This document shows positions 35,816-46,141 of a stretch of 56,623 nucleotides of DNA, piece after piece; position 1 is the first letter of the stretch; each line of letters opens with the position of its first letter. The notes under the pieces were generated by a model. That model ran no database searches and was not told the DNA's origin. It saw nothing but the letters and a program-made list of their open reading frames with translations. The DNA is taken from the NCBI GenBank assembly GCA_009843865.1, contig VYCQ01000032.1, positions 97,671 through 154,293 on the forward strand. Direction: 5' to 3'. The stretch is from Acidimicrobiia bacterium (GTDB taxonomy: Bacteria; Actinomycetota; Acidimicrobiia; Acidimicrobiales; Bin134). A program made the translations under genes and the position numbers.

Positions 35816-36955
35816 ATGAACGCTGTAGAGGTGGTTGTGTTCACCCTTGGTGCGCTGGTTTCTGTGGGTACGCTGCTGGCAGCTATTCAAACAGTGGTAG
35901 TGCCTCGCACAGAGCGTAGCTTTTTGATTCGTTTTGTTTATGTGGGAATGGGCTTGTTGTTCTCCTTGTTAGCCCGTCGCCGCAAAACCTATCAAGCACG
36001 CGATGCTCTGTTGGCTCGCTATGCCCCCATCACATTGATGAGCTTGCCGTTGGTGTGGGCCGCGGGTGTTACTTACGGGTTTTCGTTGATGTTTTGGGGC
36101 TTGGATGTGCGGCCTTATCGCGAAGCGCTTGTGCTGAGCGGCTGGTCACTGACCACCTTGGGTTATCGCATTACCAACGATGTGTTGACTTTGATGTTGG
36201 CCACAGCTGAGGCGCTTATTGGTTTAGGCATTGTGGCGTTGCTGATTAGCTTTTTGCCCACCATGTACAGCGCCTTCAGCTCGCGAGAGGTGGCGGTAGC
36301 TCGGTTGGAGATAAGAGCTGGCACGCCTCCTACACCCGAGGCCATGATTATCTTGGCTCATGAAAACGGTGCCTTGGAGTTAATGGATCAAACTTGGACT
36401 GAGTGGGAGCACTGGTTTATCCATATAGAAGAAACCCATCAGAGTTATCCCGCCTTGGTTTACTTCCGCTCGGTGCGAGCCGACCGTTCGTGGGTCACCG
36501 CAGCGGGTGCTGTTTTGGACACGGCAGCCATCATGTTGTCTACCGTGGCAGTGCCCCCATCGCCAGCAGCTCCTTTTGTTATTCGCTCGGGTTACGTGGC
36601 GTTGCGCCACATCGCTGATTTTTTTGCCATCGATTACAACTCCGACCCGGCACCTAGTGCTCCCATCTCAGTGCGTCGTCATGAGTTTTACGCAACCTAC
36701 GATAAGTTGAAGATGGTTGGAGTGCCTCTAGTGCAAGATCGCGAGCAGGCGTGGCGTGATTTTGCTGGTTGGCGGGTGAACTACGACGAGTGCTTGGTGG
36801 CGTTGGCCTCTATCACCTCGGCACCGCCGGGCAAGTGGAGCAGCGATCGTCCTTCTCCTTACCATCGATTGCCGTTGTTGCGTCGACCTCTGCGTCCCAC
36901 CGTTCCACCGGTTTTGCGTCAGCTTCGTGTCAAAAGCGGAGGTTTTAGGCGTTGA
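35816..36955 (+). CDS. membrane protein with degenerate two-TM ion-channel pore region
   Basis: The 379-aa protein has an N-terminal hydrophobic helix, two more around residues 75-95 and 120-145, and a cytoplasmic C-terminal part of ~220 residues with 'LEIRAGTPPTPEAMI' and 'RHIADFFAIDYNSD'. Between helices, SGWSLTTLGYRITND sits where K+ channels have the P-loop and TVGYGD filter; here the filter reads TTLGYR. This suggests a diverged channel or a non-conducting relative. It is followed by an SLC41-like transporter (29-nt overlap) and a PhoU-TrkA_C regulator, so a role in cation transport is likely. Family identity is tentative. Confidence 0.65.
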   Translation: MNAVEVVVFTLGALVSVGTLLAAIQTVVVPRTERSFLIRFVYVGMGLLFSLLARRRKTYQARDALLARYAPITLMSLPLVWAAGVTYGFSLMFWGLDVRPYREALVLSGWSLTTLGYRITNDVLTLMLATAEALIGLGIVALLISFLPTMYSAFSSREVAVARLEIRAGTPPTPEAMIILAHENGALELMDQTWTEWEHWFIHIEETHQSYPALVYFRSVRADRSWVTAAGAVLDTAAIMLSTVAVPPSPAAPFVIRSGYVALRHIADFFAIDYNSDPAPSAPISVRRHEFYATYDKLKMVGVPLVQDREQAWRDFAGWRVNYDECLVALASITSAPPGKWSSDRPSPYHRLPLLRRPLRPTVPPVLRQLRVKSGGFRR

Positions 36956-38174
36956 TGTCCCCGTTGTACGTTTGATGCGCTTGTTGGGTCCTGATCCCCA
37001 AGGGGTGCGCCAGTCGCTAAGCGCTTTGGGCATTTTGGTGGTGACCAGCGTGATAGCAGGCGTGGTGTTAGGCCAAAGCCACGAGCGCTTAGGTGAGCTG
37101 CCCGGGCTCTTGTTACTGGTACCAGCTGCTATAGCCCTGCCTGGCAAGATCTTTGGTACCTTGGGCAGCAGGCTTGGCACTGCCATTCATACCGGCACGT
37201 TTCGCATGTCGTTAGGGCTGAACAGTGTGGTGGGCCAAAATGTGTGGGCTTCTGTGGTGTTGACTTTGTTGATGTCTGTGGTGTTGGCTTTTTTTGCGTC
37301 GGCGTTAGCTTTCATCACGGGCGTGGAACATGCCATTGGTGTGGCCGATTATCTGGTTGTTTCGGTGTTTGGAGGGGTGTTAGCAGCTGTGATGGTGATG
37401 CTGGTGACCTTGGGCATGGCTACTGCTTCGGTTCGTTTTGGTCTTGACCCCGACAACGTGACAGCGCCTATGGTGACCGCAGCGGGCGATGTCTTGGCTT
37501 TACCCGCGCTTGTTTTGGCCTCATACTTGCTTGACCATGACGCGTTTACTGCGGTGCTGGCGGCAGGAGCGGTGGTACTAACGGTTGTGTTACTGGGATT
37601 GGCTGTTCGTTCAAGCGCTTCTTTGCTGCGCACCGTGTTGTGGGAATCCATTCCGGTGCTTGTTTTGGCGGGAGTTTTGTCGTTGATGGCAGGGGTTACC
37701 GTAGAGAATCGTTTTGAGGTTTTTTCTGAGCGTCCCGTGTTGTTGGTGCTAATACCCGGTTTTTTGGCTGCTGCGGGGGCGCTGGGAGGCATTTTGAGCA
37801 ACCGGTTGTCCAGCAAGTTGCATCTAGGTCTCATTGGTCCCTCGGTTATGCCAGTTCGTAAAGCCCGGGGTGATATATGGGTGATCGCGGCAATGGCGTT
37901 GCCGGTGTTTGTGTTTTTAGCGTTGGTTTCGCAAGGCGCGGGCTCATTGATTGACCTAGCTGGCCCGGGTCTCAGCCGCTTATTGGGTGTTGTTTTGCTA
38001 GGTGGCGTGTTAGCTGTTGTGGTTGTTGTGTTGGTGGGTTATTACGGCACCATTGCCGCAGTCAGTTTGGGGGTGGATCCTGATTCGGTGGGCATTCCCA
38101 CCGTTACAGCAGTGCTGGATTTGGTGGGCGCTCTGGCGCTGGTGTTTGCCATTCAAGCGGTGGGTGCTGCATGA
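36927..38174 (+). CDS. SLC41/MgtE-like divalent cation transporter
   Basis: The 415-aa protein has about ten hydrophobic helices arranged as two similar halves. Each half has the MgtE-type helix with LPGKIFGTLGSRLGTAIHTG (first) or ALGGILSNRLSSKLHLG (second), and a later segment VRFGLDPDNVTAPMVTAAGDVLALP or VSLGVDPDSVGIPTVTAVLDLVGAL, where the Asp residues line the metal path. The duplicated layout and absence of cytoplasmic CBS domains match eukaryote-like SLC41 rather than classic MgtE. It probably moves Mg2+. GTG 36927 overlaps the upstream gene. Confidence 0.82.
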   Translation: MSKAEVLGVDVPVVRLMRLLGPDPQGVRQSLSALGILVVTSVIAGVVLGQSHERLGELPGLLLLVPAAIALPGKIFGTLGSRLGTAIHTGTFRMSLGLNSVVGQNVWASVVLTLLMSVVLAFFASALAFITGVEHAIGVADYLVVSVFGGVLAAVMVMLVTLGMATASVRFGLDPDNVTAPMVTAAGDVLALPALVLASYLLDHDAFTAVLAAGAVVLTVVLLGLAVRSSASLLRTVLWESIPVLVLAGVLSLMAGVTVENRFEVFSERPVLLVLIPGFLAAAGALGGILSNRLSSKLHLGLIGPSVMPVRKARGDIWVIAAMALPVFVFLALVSQGAGSLIDLAGPGLSRLLGVVLLGGVLAVVVVVLVGYYGTIAAVSLGVDPDSVGIPTVTAVLDLVGALALVFAIQAVGAA

Positions 38175-38224
38175 GTTGGCCGCCTTATAACAGAAGTGGA
38201 GTAGCCTCATGAAGGTTGACAGCA

Positions 38225-39430
38225 ATGACAGAAGATAGACCGCGTAATCTTCGGGCCATGCTGGCTGAGGCTAAAGACCTCTCCGAGCTCATGGTGGATC
38301 TGGCATACGCAGCCTTGTATTTCAGTGACCCAGACATGGCCACCGAGGTGGACGAGTTGGAGTTGCAGATGACCGTACTCGTGCAGCAAATGCGAGCGGT
38401 CTGTGTTATGGCCGTGCGTCACCCTCGTGAAGCCGAAGGCATGGCTTCGGTGCTTCAGGTGATTAGCGCTATTGAGCGAATTGGTAATGATGCGGTGGAT
38501 ATTGCCCGTATCGTTACCCGCAAGCTGGGCATTCCCGCTGAGTTGGTAGCTGACATGTCTCATGCTGAAGAGGTGTCGCATCGTTTGGTGGTGAACGAGG
38601 GCTCTCACATGGCTGGAAGTACTTTGGGAGCATTGGAGTTGCCGGTGGTAGCAGGCATGAGGGTGATGGCAATCCGCAGAGATCGAAGTTGGATTACCGA
38701 TGTGGGCGGAGATCAGCTAGTGATGTCCGGTGATGTGCTGTTTTTGCGGGGTTCTCCGGCAGGCATTGTGCGTTTGCATGAGCTTGCGGCTGCTCCGGTT
38801 TGGGAAGAACCGCAGCTCTCAGAAGATCCGTGGTTTTCTGATCTGGATAGGGCTGTGAATGTGTTGGTGGAGATGAAGGATCTCTCTGAGGCCGCGGTGG
38901 GTTTGGCCTATTCGGCGCTGGTGCTAAGCGATAGGGGACTGGCAGCGCAAGTGCGTTTGTTGGAAGGCCGCTTAGATGAGATGAATCATCAGCTAGAGCT
39001 GTGGGTGCTGCGAGCCGCTGCTCAAAATATCAACCCCGCTCCGTTGCGGGGCTTGTTGCATTTGGGTCAGGTCGCTGAAGATATTGGAGATCAGGCCCGC
39101 CAAATGGTTGCGTTGCTAGAAACAGGCGAGGAAGTGCATCCTATTTTGGAGATTGCCTTAGGCGATTCCGAAGAGGTGGTGGTGGACTTGCCGGTGGCGG
39201 CAGGCAGTGAAGCAGATGGTGTTTTGCTTAAGGATCTAGCTCTTAACATCGAGCCTGGTTTTACTGTGTTGGCGATTCGTCGAGCTGGACGTTATATGTA
39301 TCGTCCCCGGGGCAACGTGGTGTTGCTGGTAGGTGACGAGATAATTGCCAGCGGGCCCGATGAAGGACGCGAGGCTTTGTCCACCCGTTTGGGTTGGAAC
39401 TTGGTACGTGAATCAGCGACACGTTATTAG
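38225..39430 (+). CDS. doubled PhoU-TrkA_C regulatory protein
   Basis: ATG 38225 (MTEDRPRN) is preferred over TTG 38216; GAAGG lies 9 nt upstream. The 401-aa soluble protein is a tandem duplication. Each half has a PhoU-like helical hairpin starting LSELMVDLAYAALYFSD (first) or LSEAAVGLAYSALVLSD (second), followed by a TrkA_C (RCK C-terminal) beta domain (AGMRVMAIRRDRSWI, GDQLVMSGDVLFLRG; FTVLAIRRAGRYMY, LLVGDEIIASGP). TrkA_C domains bind nucleotides or ions and gate transporters, so it is probably the regulator of the transporter and channel-like protein just upstream. Confidence 0.85.
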   Translation: MTEDRPRNLRAMLAEAKDLSELMVDLAYAALYFSDPDMATEVDELELQMTVLVQQMRAVCVMAVRHPREAEGMASVLQVISAIERIGNDAVDIARIVTRKLGIPAELVADMSHAEEVSHRLVVNEGSHMAGSTLGALELPVVAGMRVMAIRRDRSWITDVGGDQLVMSGDVLFLRGSPAGIVRLHELAAAPVWEEPQLSEDPWFSDLDRAVNVLVEMKDLSEAAVGLAYSALVLSDRGLAAQVRLLEGRLDEMNHQLELWVLRAAAQNINPAPLRGLLHLGQVAEDIGDQARQMVALLETGEEVHPILEIALGDSEEVVVDLPVAAGSEADGVLLKDLALNIEPGFTVLAIRRAGRYMYRPRGNVVLLVGDEIIASGPDEGREALSTRLGWNLVRESATRY

Positions 39431-43797: not shown

Positions 43798-44745
43798 ATG
43801 ACCATCGCCGAGCCGGTCACCATAGATATTGCCCGTAACGGGCTTATGGCAACTCTTGTAGGCGAGGGAGATAGCCACCTTCGTCAGATCCAGCGATCAT
43901 TTCCCGATGCCGATATTTTTGTGCGGGGCAATCGCATCACGGTATCGGGCTCTGCTGCGGATCAGGTGGCTGAGCTATTTGATGAGATGATCTTGTTGGT
44001 GCAAGGAGGCCACCAGTTAGATTCCCGCACACTGGATAGAGCCATTGAGATGGTAGGAGCCGATGAAAGCCCTTCAGGGGTGATGGATAGCGATGTGCTG
44101 CATTCTGGTCGGGGTCGGGTTATTCGCCCTCAGTCGGCGGGGCAGCGTCGCTATGTGGATGCTATGCGAGACAACATCATCACCTTCGGTATTGGCCCCG
44201 CAGGAACCGGTAAGAGCTGGCTGGCGGTGGCCATGGCTGTGCGGGAGCTAAGAGCCCATAATGTTGAACGAATTATTTTGACACGCCCAGCAGTTGAGGC
44301 AGGTGAGCGTTTGGGGTTTTTACCCGGCGACATGATCGCTAAGGTAGATCCGTATCTTCGCCCCCTGTACGACGCTCTGTACGACATGATGCAGACCGAG
44401 GAGGTGCAGGCGTTGGTAGAGCGGGGGGTGATTGAGATAGCGCCGCTGGCCTTCATGCGGGGGCGTACCCTTAACAACAGCTTTATTATTTTGGATGAAG
44501 CACAAAACACCACCCCCGAGCAGATGAAGATGTTCTTGACTCGCATTGGTTTTGGTTCTAAAGCTGTGGTTACCGGCGATGTAACTCAGGTGGATGTAGA
44601 CCGGGGTCGCAGTGGTTTGGATTCCTTAGAAAAGATTCTTGCCAGCATTAATGGTTTGTCGTTTGTGCATCTCACGGCACGAGACGTGGTACGCCATCGC
44701 ATCGTGGCCGATATCGTGAATGCGTATGAGCAGGCGAAACGGTGA
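43798..44745 (+). CDS. phoH: PhoH-family ATPase
   Basis: The 315-aa protein has a KH-like N-terminal region (~10-75) and the PhoH ATPase: Walker A IGPAGTGKSWLAVAMAV, LTRPAVEAGERLGFLPGD, Walker B FIILDEAQNTTPEQMKMFL and TGDVTQVD. PhoH proteins are RNA-binding ATPases linked to rRNA maturation; the coupled ybeY gene (4-nt overlap), encoding an rRNA-processing endonuclease, supports this. The symbol follows family usage (also called ybeZ in this context). Confidence 0.94.
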   Translation: MTIAEPVTIDIARNGLMATLVGEGDSHLRQIQRSFPDADIFVRGNRITVSGSAADQVAELFDEMILLVQGGHQLDSRTLDRAIEMVGADESPSGVMDSDVLHSGRGRVIRPQSAGQRRYVDAMRDNIITFGIGPAGTGKSWLAVAMAVRELRAHNVERIILTRPAVEAGERLGFLPGDMIAKVDPYLRPLYDALYDMMQTEEVQALVERGVIEIAPLAFMRGRTLNNSFIILDEAQNTTPEQMKMFLTRIGFGSKAVVTGDVTQVDVDRGRSGLDSLEKILASINGLSFVHLTARDVVRHRIVADIVNAYEQAKR

Positions 44746-45293
44746 GCAGCCAGGCTGACATCAAACTGAAGAGCCAGTCAAGATGTCAAGGCTGTGTTAT
44801 CGCCACAGAGAATCGCCAGAGTGATCTTGTGATTGCCCAACAGTGCTGGGTGGGGTTGATGCGTTTGGTGCTACAGGCAGAAGGTGTGGCAGAGCCCTGG
44901 GAGGCGGGCTTGTGGTTTGTGGATGCAACCGAGATGGCCAAGTTGAACCAACTACACAGGGGCATCGCACAATCCACAGATGTGTTGGCGTTGGGTACCG
45001 ACGATGGAATGGCTTTACGAGCTAGTGGTGAACCACGTTTGGTGGGCGATGTGGTTATCTGCCCATCGGTAGCAGCAACTCATGCTGTTGCTCATGCTAA
45101 GAAGGTGGATGAAGAGCTAGCTTTGCTGATAGTCCATGGCACGTTGCATTTGCTGGGTTACGACCATCAACAAAACGCTGACGCTGTTCGAATGCGTCAG
45201 CGCGAGCAAGAGTTGCTGACGCAAGGGTTAGCCAGAGGGTTTAGTTCTCAAGAGTTTGTTGGCGCTGATGAGGAGTTGCGTGAAGGGTGCTAG
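44742..45293 (+). CDS. ybeY: endoribonuclease YbeY
   Basis: The 183-aa metalloprotein has the zinc site HGTLHLLGYDH and the core motifs WFVDATEMAKLNQLHRGIAQSTDVLAL and VGDVVICPSVA. YbeY works in 16S rRNA 3' maturation and ribosome quality control. The first ~28 residues are extra and Cys/Gln-rich. GTG 44742 overlaps the phoH stop, and its end overlaps the next start by 7 nt, so the three genes are translated together. Confidence 0.94.
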   Translation: MSSQADIKLKSQSRCQGCVIATENRQSDLVIAQQCWVGLMRLVLQAEGVAEPWEAGLWFVDATEMAKLNQLHRGIAQSTDVLALGTDDGMALRASGEPRLVGDVVICPSVAATHAVAHAKKVDEELALLIVHGTLHLLGYDHQQNADAVRMRQREQELLTQGLARGFSSQEFVGADEELREGC

Positions 45294-46141
45294 GTAGTTT
45301 GCGGTTGTTGGGCCGGTTTGGGCCGCTGAGTCGGCTAGTGCGGGCCAGCAAGCGCCGCGAGCCTCCTCAGGTGTCAGAAGAAGAGCTGCTAGCGGTAGCC
45401 GAGGCAGCCGAACTCTCTGATTCTATTGAGCCTGAAGAGCGCGAACTCATTGGTCAAATTATTGAGTTTGGTGACACCGTGGCTCGAGAGGTGATGGTAC
45501 CTCGTACAGACATGGTAGCGATTAGCGAGCAGCAGTCGGTGGACGAGGTGATTGGTGTGGTGATTCAGCATGGTTACAGCAGGGTGCCTGTTTTTCGAGA
45601 GGGCATAGACGATGTGGTGGGTGTGGTACACGCTAAAGATCTGATGCGGGCTGAACGTGTACAGGGCGGTGGGTCGCCTGCGGTGGCGGTTGCTCGTCCA
45701 GCTCATTTTGTGCCTGAGACCAAGCGAATTTCGCTGCTGCTTAAAGAAATGCAAACCGAGCAGTTTCACATTGCCATTGTGGTGGATGAATACGGCGGAA
45801 CCGCCGGGGTGGTCACTCTAGAAGACCTGATTGAAGAGTTGGTGGGGGAGATCGTGGATGAGTTTGATGTGGAAGAACCCATGATTGAGCGGTTGGCCTC
45901 CAATACGGTTCGGGTGAATGGGCGAGTGCACCTCGCTGAGCTCAGCGAGGTGCTGCGAGCGCCCTTGCCCAGCGGCAACTGGGATACGGTGGGCGGGCTG
46001 ATCTTCAACACGCTGGGCCATGTGCCGGGCGAAGGCGAAACCTTGGTGTTAGATGGTTGGGAACTGCGGGTAGAACGAGTAACCGGCCGCCGCATTGCCA
46101 GGGTTATCGTCAAACCTGTCTCTGTGGGAGCGGGCGAGTAG
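45287..46141 (+). CDS. CBS-pair/CorC_HlyC protein (CorC-like)
   Basis: The 284-aa soluble protein has REVMVPRTDMVAISEQQSVDEVI leading into two CBS domains (~65-190, VPVFREGIDDVVGVVHAKDL; IAIVVDEYGGTAGVVTLEDLIEELVGEI) and a CorC_HlyC domain (~200-280, GRVHLAELSEVL, VGGLIFNTLGHVPGEGE). The DUF21 membrane domain of larger relatives is absent, as in CorC. It may modulate Mg2+/Co2+ handling. The phoH-ybeY-corC order is widespread. GTG 45287 is within the ybeY end. Confidence 0.9.
   Translation: MLGSLRLLGRFGPLSRLVRASKRREPPQVSEEELLAVAEAAELSDSIEPEERELIGQIIEFGDTVAREVMVPRTDMVAISEQQSVDEVIGVVIQHGYSRVPVFREGIDDVVGVVHAKDLMRAERVQGGGSPAVAVARPAHFVPETKRISLLLKEMQTEQFHIAIVVDEYGGTAGVVTLEDLIEELVGEIVDEFDVEEPMIERLASNTVRVNGRVHLAELSEVLRAPLPSGNWDTVGGLIFNTLGHVPGEGETLVLDGWELRVERVTGRRIARVIVKPVSVGAGE

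What the first reader, a model, noticed from the sequence alone, without database searches (positions are those of the whole stretch)
35816..39430. Three-gene cation transport unit with a pseudo-channel and a doubled PhoU-TrkA_C regulator
A channel-like protein whose filter reads TTLGYR instead of TVGYGD is coupled to an SLC41-like transporter and then to a protein made of two PhoU-TrkA_C units. The two-fold repeat of the regulator matches the two-fold repeat of the transporter, which suggests direct gating. I know of no characterised example.
Basis: partly seen in the sequence, partly recalled or inferred. Interest (0 to 1): 0.5.

Follow-up and report, generated by a model that had tools for sequence, protein, structure and literature searches.

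The report
Magnesium-type transporter with its own regulator
Two neighbouring bacterial genes encode a doubled magnesium-channel-like transporter and a matching doubled regulator that are almost always inherited together, while the odd channel gene beside them is a separate, only locally linked neighbour.

Summary
In detail: three same-strand genes, all as described. The interpretation needs cutting to two genes. g2 (two MgtE domains, no N or CBS sensor domains) and g3 (two PhoU-TrkA_C units, soluble) form a robust pair: in 296 genomes of the phylum g3 occurs in 97, g2 in 96 of those, and 92 of the 96 have g2 directly upstream of g3. A haloarchaeal plasmid has the doubled regulator followed by two separate half-MgtE genes and corA, and each half or unit matches its own counterpart across the two domains of life. 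Best reading: a divalent-cation (probably Mg2+) pore or carrier whose missing built-in sensor is replaced by g3 as a separate gating subunit. This is inferred; no contact was tested. g1 is a divergent pore-loop channel (T-L-G invariant; the second glycine of TVGYG absent in 56 of 56 members). Related Ion_trans_2 channels of the same order also carry TVG[YF]R filters, so GYR is not unique. g1 adjoins g2 in its genus and some other Acidimicrobiia, but in only 2 of 40 phylum-wide genomes that have both. It is linked locally, not a fixed third subunit. c-di-AMP is an unlikely ligand here: the genus lacks the cyclase.

The parts
35816..36955 (+). g1: divergent pore-loop channel-like membrane protein, 379 aa
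   Evidence: (AF2 pLDDT 85)
36032..36271 (+). g1 pore domain (residues 73-152): outer helix, pore helix, filter, inner helix
   Evidence: VIA-align: NaK 2ahy_B Z 7.8, rmsd 2.8, 76 aligned; hhalign to PF07885 channels E 8.2e-5, columns 99-146
36152..36169 (+). g1 filter TTLGYR (residues 113-118)
   Evidence: T114 L115 G116 in 56 of 56; F40/Y11 at 117; G at 118 in 0 of 56
36323..36865 (+). g1 C-terminal helical soluble domain (residues 170-350) with invariant G318 W319 R320, N322 Y323
   Evidence: no confident fold match (inconclusive)
36927..38174 (+). g2: SLC41-like transporter, two fused MgtE transmembrane domains, no N/CBS domains
   Evidence: PF01769 6.8e-25, two stretches; AF2 pLDDT 83; VIA Z 14.2 to MgtE transmembrane domain 4u9n, 177 of 177 residues
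37119..37517 (+). g2 MgtE domain 1
   Evidence: C21:134789-135187, 56.3 bits
37752..38147 (+). g2 MgtE domain 2
   Evidence: C21:135422-135817, 51.7 bits
37449..37490 (+). first P(D/A)X4PX6D motif, P175-D188
   Evidence: D188 invariant in A2
38079..38120 (+). second P(D/A)X4PX6D motif, P385-D398
   Evidence: D384 and D398 invariant in A2
38216..39430 (+). g3: soluble regulator, (PhoU-TrkA_C) x 2, 404 aa
   Evidence: no hydrophobic segment; PDB 1vct single-unit homologue E 4.7e-56
38264..38782 (+). g3 unit 1: PhoU (17-100) + TrkA_C (123-189)
38840..39385 (+). g3 unit 2: PhoU + TrkA_C (about residues 209-390)

Best explanation
g2 and g3 are a two-gene, ligand-gated divalent-cation transport system. 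g2 is a single-chain pseudo-dimer of two MgtE transmembrane domains and forms one Mg2+-type permeation path. In dimeric MgtE a cytoplasmic N/CBS domain and plug helix sense Mg2+ and close the pore; g2 has neither. g3, a cytoplasmic tandem of two PhoU-TrkA_C units, does that job in trans: it docks on the cytoplasmic face, one unit per half, and opens or closes the path when its TrkA_C pockets and/or PhoU metal sites bind ligand. This follows the logic of RCK-type subunits (KtrA-KtrB, KhtT-KhtU) applied to a divalent-cation transporter. g1 is a separate divergent pore-loop cation channel that shares the neighbourhood in some Acidimicrobiia. Shown: domains, repeats, fold, co-inheritance, gene order, cross-domain conservation. 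Inferred: Mg2+ as substrate, docking, gating, ligand class, direction of transport.
For: Co-inheritance 96 of 97 and adjacency 92 of 96, always g2 upstream, median gap 28 nt between matched segments. In three order-level families (G032, G040, G044) and in G191 the genes are split, yet both are kept. The C half of g2 matches the whole MgtE transmembrane domain at Z 14.2, and D398 and D384 fall on MgtE positions 432 and 418 by the end-aligned offset; Asp418 bridges the transmembrane domain and plug helices through Mg2+ in MgtE (passage, PMC8104411). Two P(D/A)X4PX6D motifs are the SLC41/MgtE signature given in PMC9276622 (passages). Halobaculum roseum: doubled regulator, two half-MgtE genes, corA; g2N is nearest to the second half gene, g2C to the first, g3N to archaeal unit N, g3C to unit C. 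g3 relatives in the PDB include RCK_C domains of KtrC, KtrA, KhtT, MthK and GntR-type regulators (their roles are recalled).
Against: No contact, transport or ligand data. g3 alone could act elsewhere. Two genomes of the order (G022, G046, 84% and 80% complete) have g3 without a found g2. The PX6GN motif is not met strictly in either half of the window protein (PX6GK, PX6GA). c-di-AMP, the best-known RCK_C ligand (recalled), is unlikely in this genus (cyclase PF02457 in 0 of 13 genus genomes), so the ligand is unknown. CorA and two CNNM genes are also present, so g2 need not be the Mg2+ importer.
Confidence: 0.6

Rival explanations
1. All three proteins work as one complex: g1 is a third subunit.
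For: g1 precedes g2 on the same strand in 17 of 18 genus genomes that have both, and in 23 of the 80 best g1 loci (13 genus, 10 other). The gene between them varies (none, nitronate monooxygenase, sCache lipoprotein), yet the order stays. g1 occurs with the pair in 40 of 51 genomes, against 96 of 296 overall (confounded by descent).
Against: In the phylum sample only 2 of 40 are adjacent and 11 of 51 lack the pair. None of 23 Chloroflexota or cyanobacterial g1 loci with enough downstream sequence has g2 within 2 kb. 95 of 97 g3 genomes have no g1 within 5 kb of g2.
Confidence: 0.12
2. g3 is a phosphate or metabolic regulator of PhoU type that does not touch g2; adjacency reflects joint regulation only.
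For: PhoU domains score well (PF01895 5.2e-18), and PhoU homologue 4q25 is in the PDB list.
Against: No Pst or PhoR genes are among the neighbours scanned. Co-inheritance is 96 of 97, and both genes persist when split. The archaeal relative sits with MgtE halves and corA. The best PDB relative is the PhoU-TrkA_C protein PH0236, not PhoU.
Confidence: 0.15
3. g2 is an exporter (Na+/Mg2+ exchange, as reported for SLC41A1) and g3 switches on efflux when Mg2+ is high; otherwise as in the best explanation.
For: g2 has the SLC41 layout (two MgtE domains, no CBS). SLC41A1 is reported as a Na+/Mg2+ exchanger (passages, PMC9276622; PMC12941325). The genome has CorA for uptake.
Against: CNNM proteins, an efflux type, are also present. 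The fold matches the MgtE channel. Sequence cannot tell direction.
Confidence: 0.3

Closest known systems
MgtE Mg2+ channel (Thermus thermophilus; PDB 2zy9, 4u9n)
   Same: Transmembrane fold of each half; permeation-path Asp positions; two transmembrane domains make one pore
   Different: MgtE is a homodimer with N, CBS and plug domains on the same chain; g2 is a fused pseudo-dimer without them, with a separate regulator gene
SLC41 family of animals and archaeal double-MgtE proteins
   Same: Two MgtE domains in one chain, two P(D/A)X4PX6D motifs, no CBS
   Different: g2 is bacterial, although PMC9276622 (passage) states that double motifs occur only in Archaea, choanoflagellates and metazoa; and it comes with a dedicated PhoU-TrkA_C partner
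PH0236 (PDB 1vct, 2bkn, 2bko, 2bkp), PhoU-TrkA_C protein of unknown function (from Pyrococcus, recalled)
   Same: Same domain order, E 4.7e-56 to the g3 profile
   Different: One unit, not two; its genomic partner was not examined here
KtrA-KtrB, KhtT-KhtU, MthK (RCK-gated K+ systems)
   Same: Cytoplasmic TrkA_C/RCK_C regulator paired with a membrane transport unit (mechanism recalled)
   Different: No TrkA_N Rossmann domain in g3; PhoU in its place; the partner is of a divalent-cation family; c-di-AMP cyclase absent in this genus
Ion_trans_2 pore-loop channels (NaK, Kir, RCK channels), for g1
   Same: Pore-loop architecture and TxG[FY] filter start
   Different: Below the Pfam cut-off, no second Gly or Asp, own C-terminal domain

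Membership tests
SLC41 / double-MgtE transporters (g2) | Two MgtE (PF01769) domains above cut-off | tested here: met
   56.3 and 51.7 bits against a cut-off of 27.6
SLC41 / double-MgtE transporters (g2) | P(D/A)X4PX6D motif in both halves | tested here: met
   P175-D188 and P385-D398 in the window protein; of 34 family rows the strict pattern is double in 12, single in 21, none in 1, the final Asp being invariant in both halves of A2
SLC41 / double-MgtE transporters (g2) | PX6GN motif in both halves | tested here: not met
   PX6GK and PX6GA in the window protein; GN is common in the first half of relatives. Hence 'SLC41-like', not filed as SLC41
SLC41 / double-MgtE transporters (g2) | MgtE transmembrane fold | tested here: met
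   Z 14.2, rmsd 3.4, 177 residues of 4u9n over model 226-414
SLC41 / double-MgtE transporters (g2) | Mg2+ transport | not testable with these tools
   needs a flux assay
PhoU-TrkA_C regulators (g3) | PhoU followed by TrkA_C, soluble | tested here: met
   two stretches of each; no hydrophobic 19-residue segment averaging 1.6 or more
c-di-AMP-gated RCK_C systems (g3) | c-di-AMP cyclase (DAC, PF02457) in the genome | tested here: not met
   0 of 13 genus genomes including own; 7 of 8 other-family genomes have it
Ion_trans_2 K+ channels (g1) | Match to PF07885 above cut-off | tested here: not met
   none in the window protein; 1 of 16 A1 members at E 0.038
Ion_trans_2 K+ channels (g1) | TVGYGD-type filter with two glycines | tested here: not met
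   G at position 118 in 0 of 56, D at 119 in 4 of 56
Ion_trans_2 K+ channels (g1) | Pore-loop fold | tested here: inconclusive
   the seven best VIA rows are NaK or a NaK chimera, but Z 7.8 is under 8 and unrelated rows reach 7.2; hhalign E 8.2e-5 against controls 0.49 and 0.4

The most novel reading that the evidence does not exclude
A cross-domain class of Mg2+ transporter in which the Mg2+/nucleotide sensor of MgtE has been replaced by a detachable doubled PhoU-TrkA_C subunit, with an ancient asymmetric pairing: half N of the pore with unit N of the regulator, half C with unit C. It would be the bacterial counterpart of CBS-less SLC41 proteins and would show how such transporters are gated.
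Probability: 0.45. Interest if true: 0.65.

Novelty: new variant of a known kind. Interest (0 to 1): 0.48.

Why it matters
SLC41 transporters of animals lack the CBS sensor of MgtE, and how they fold and are regulated is stated to be unresolved (PMC9276622 passages). A bacterial double-MgtE protein with a dedicated soluble regulator in the next gene offers a tractable system for that question. It also corrects the stated restriction of double motifs to Archaea, choanoflagellates and metazoa: 96 of 296 sampled genomes of this bacterial phylum hold a relative of g2.

Tried and rejected
Rejected: (1) a fixed three-gene operon. (2) c-di-AMP as general ligand. (3) GYR as a unique filter: L284, L294, L299 and L303, above the PF07885 cut-off, read TVGYRH, TVGFRE, TVGFRE and TVGYRE; the two scanned for domains, L284 and L294, carry TrkA_N and TrkA_C. 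(4) g2 as the only Mg2+ route: CorA and two CNNM genes exist in the same genome.

Led nowhere: sequence search of the PDB with g1 and A1 gave only chance hits, and with g2 and A2 none or one chance hit. Foldseek with g1 and g2 gave no match at E 0.001 or better; for g2 the first rows were MATE-type proteins, MgtE 5x9h appearing at rank 38 with probability 1.00, and VIA put MgtE on top. The C-terminal domain of g1 had no convincing match (inconclusive). The promoter and terminator scan was at or below chance. Paper searches for the pair found nothing relevant in their listings: PhoU+TrkA_C+MgtE, COG3273/COG1824, PH0236 or PhoU, PhoU domain/TrkA-C/magnesium transporter/archaea, trkac+phou, PH0236/1VCT/2BKO/2BKP, PhoU domain/RCK/magnesium/operon, RCK_C+PhoU, TrkA C-terminal domain/magnesium transporter/MgtE. 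Only open-licence PMC papers were searched, so absence in print is not shown. The archaeal side rests on one plasmid.

Rows dropped: three weak g3 rows (G039, G057:C135, G023). A7 used 15 of the 33 rows. A5 used 55 of the 80 loci plus the window. A1 used 15, A2 15 and A3 11 related loci, chosen for spread; L089, with an internal stop, was left out. The grouping loci into genus, other and Chloroflexota/cyanobacteria is mine, from identity and record titles.
Full report
What is there. The window lies in a 1.79 Mb, 98% complete genome in 43 contigs. Its closest named relatives are mostly Acidimicrobiia MAGs, two of them named Candidatus Poriferisocius (Acidimicrobiales, Actinomycetota). Downstream of infC, rplT and a SpoU-type RNA methylase stand g1 (35816-36955), g2 (36927-38174) and g3 (38216-39430), all on the + strand. 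The downstream gene, a methyltransferase, is convergent and overlaps g3's end by four bases.

g2. Two MgtE domains above the Pfam cut-off make up the whole protein; the halves align with each other at 56 of 170 positions, Z 17 against shuffles. An AlphaFold2 model from 19 sequences has mean pLDDT 83. Its C half aligns with all 177 residues of the MgtE transmembrane domain (4u9n, Z 14.2, rmsd 3.4). Counting back from the aligned end (model 414 on chain 448), D398 falls on position 432 and D384 on 418, if no gap lies between. That Asp432 lines the MgtE pore is recalled; that Asp418 holds Mg2+ between the transmembrane domain and plug helices is in PMC8104411 (passage). D174, D176, D188, D384, D386 and D398 are invariant in 16 sequences. 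The published SLC41/MgtE signature P(D/A)X4PX6D occurs in both halves (P175-D188, P385-D398), while PX6GN is PX6GK and PX6GA (motifs from PMC9276622 passages). That review says that double motifs occur only in Archaea, choanoflagellates and metazoa; this family is a bacterial exception, found in 96 of 296 sampled genomes of the phylum.

g3. Two PhoU-TrkA_C units, 49 of 169 identities between them, Z 20, no hydrophobic stretch. The closest solved relative is the single-unit PH0236 (1vct, E 4.7e-56), then RCK_C-bearing proteins (KtrC, KtrA, MthK, KhtT, GntR-type regulators) and PhoU proteins.

The pair. In one and the same sample of 296 phylum genomes, g3 was found in 97 at E 1e-40 or better and g2 in 96 at E 1e-15 or better, all 96 within the 97; the odd one, G226, has g3 at a contig start. 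92 of 96 have the two adjacent, always g2 upstream, with 7-82 nt between matched segments. Of the other four, G174 and G250 have g2 at a contig end; G040 and G191 look truly split. Among 60 relatives: in 22 of the genus, g2 20, g3 19, both 19, all adjacent; in 38 of other families, g2 17, g3 19, both 17, 14 adjacent, with G032, G040 and G044 split but both kept, and G022 and G046 with g3 only. A tblastn of 72,556 plasmids found one relative of g3, on a Halobaculum roseum plasmid. There the doubled regulator is followed at once by two separate half-MgtE genes (both PF01769) and a convergent corA. Pairwise scores group g2N with the second half gene (220 against 188), g2C with the first (218 against 176), g3N with archaeal unit N (317 against 224) and g3C with unit C (286 against 162). 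So the asymmetry of both partners is shared between a bacterium and an archaeon.

g1. No Pfam family above cut-off. A model from 56 sequences (pLDDT 85) shows a membrane helix, a second helix (36-54), then outer helix, pore helix (101-113), filter and a long inner helix (123-168), then a helical soluble domain. The best structural matches are NaK and Kir/KATP pores (Z 7.8 and below), which by the tool's note could be a common arrangement, and unrelated rows reach 7.2. Independent support comes from profile comparison with 15 Ion_trans_2 pores of genus and order relatives (E 8.2e-5, probability 61; TTLGYR over TTVGYG), against controls of 0.49 and 0.4. In 56 members T, L and G are invariant, F or Y follows in 51, and glycine never stands at the next position. 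I therefore call it channel-like and do not file it as a K+ channel. Four Ion_trans_2 proteins of neighbouring families have TVG[YF]R as well; two of these were scanned and carry TrkA_N and TrkA_C.

Is g1 part of it? In the phylum sample 51 of 296 have g1; 40 of these also have the pair, and only the window and G055 have g1 within 5 kb of g2. In the genus 17 of 18 genomes with both have g1 upstream of g2 within 1.2 kb. In the 80 best g1 loci kept of 523 relatives found among 84,980 species genomes, 23 have g2 within 2 kb downstream: 13 of 15 genus loci, 10 of 38 other loci (21 of those 38 lack it with enough sequence, 7 are cut), and 0 of 27 Chloroflexota or cyanobacterial loci (4 cut). The gene between differs: none in the window, L191, L198 and L252; a nitronate monooxygenase (PF03060) in the genus locus scanned (L202) and, by eye, in L220 and L242; an sCache_2 lipoprotein in L209 (scanned) and, by eye, in L218, L240 and L243. 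Synteny kept while the middle gene changes hints at some link within Acidimicrobiia; shared descent explains it as well.

Mechanism. Shown: domains, repeats, folds, co-inheritance. Inferred: g2 lacks the N/CBS/plug sensor of MgtE, g3 is a cytoplasmic protein of ligand-sensing domains that follows g2 almost everywhere, so g3 probably gates g2. The ligand is not likely to be c-di-AMP in this genus (0 of 13 genomes with the cyclase); Mg2+, another metal at the PhoU sites, or a nucleotide are open. ATP modulates MgtE through its CBS domain (abstract, PMC5529423, in the listing), which makes a nucleotide or Mg-nucleotide a fair first guess. The same genome has CorA and two CNNM genes, so import or export cannot be told.

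Known or new. The parts are known families, and public annotation of the archaeal case says 'TrkA C-terminal domain-containing protein' and 'magnesium transporter'. I recall that COG lists archaeal permease and PhoU/TrkA_C clusters (COG1824, COG3273); the held papers have no hit for either name. No paper on the pair appeared in nine searches aimed at it, within the limits of an open-licence library. Verdict: a new variant of a known kind, with one published statement to correct and a clear experiment to do.

Noticed in passing
L202 11196-12170, L220, L242; L209 11183-11644, L218, L240, L243: The gene between g1 and g2 changes by lineage: nitronate monooxygenase or an sCache_2 lipoprotein, or none. 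The Cache lipoprotein could be an extracytoplasmic sensor.
   Followed up: partly
L284, L294, L299, L303: Ion_trans_2 channels of the same order read TVGYRH, TVGFREV, TVGFREV and TVGYREI in place of TVGYGD; L284 and L294 carry TrkA_N and TrkA_C.
   Followed up: partly
window 36323-36865: C-terminal domain of g1 has an invariant GWRxNY stretch; no known fold matched (inconclusive).
   Followed up: no
own genome and 12 genus relatives: No c-di-AMP cyclase (PF02457) in 13 of 13 genus genomes, while 7 of 8 sampled genomes of other families of the order have one: an apparent genus-level loss.
   Followed up: no
window 43798-46138: PhoH gene, and a CBS + CorC_HlyC protein (45287-46138) downstream of it: a second possibly Mg-related locus in the same window.
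   Followed up: no
L203 1371-1820 and 4223-5287 (G021:C20): A second, partial g1 copy (query 1-150, 76% identical) stands upstream of the complete one.
   Followed up: no
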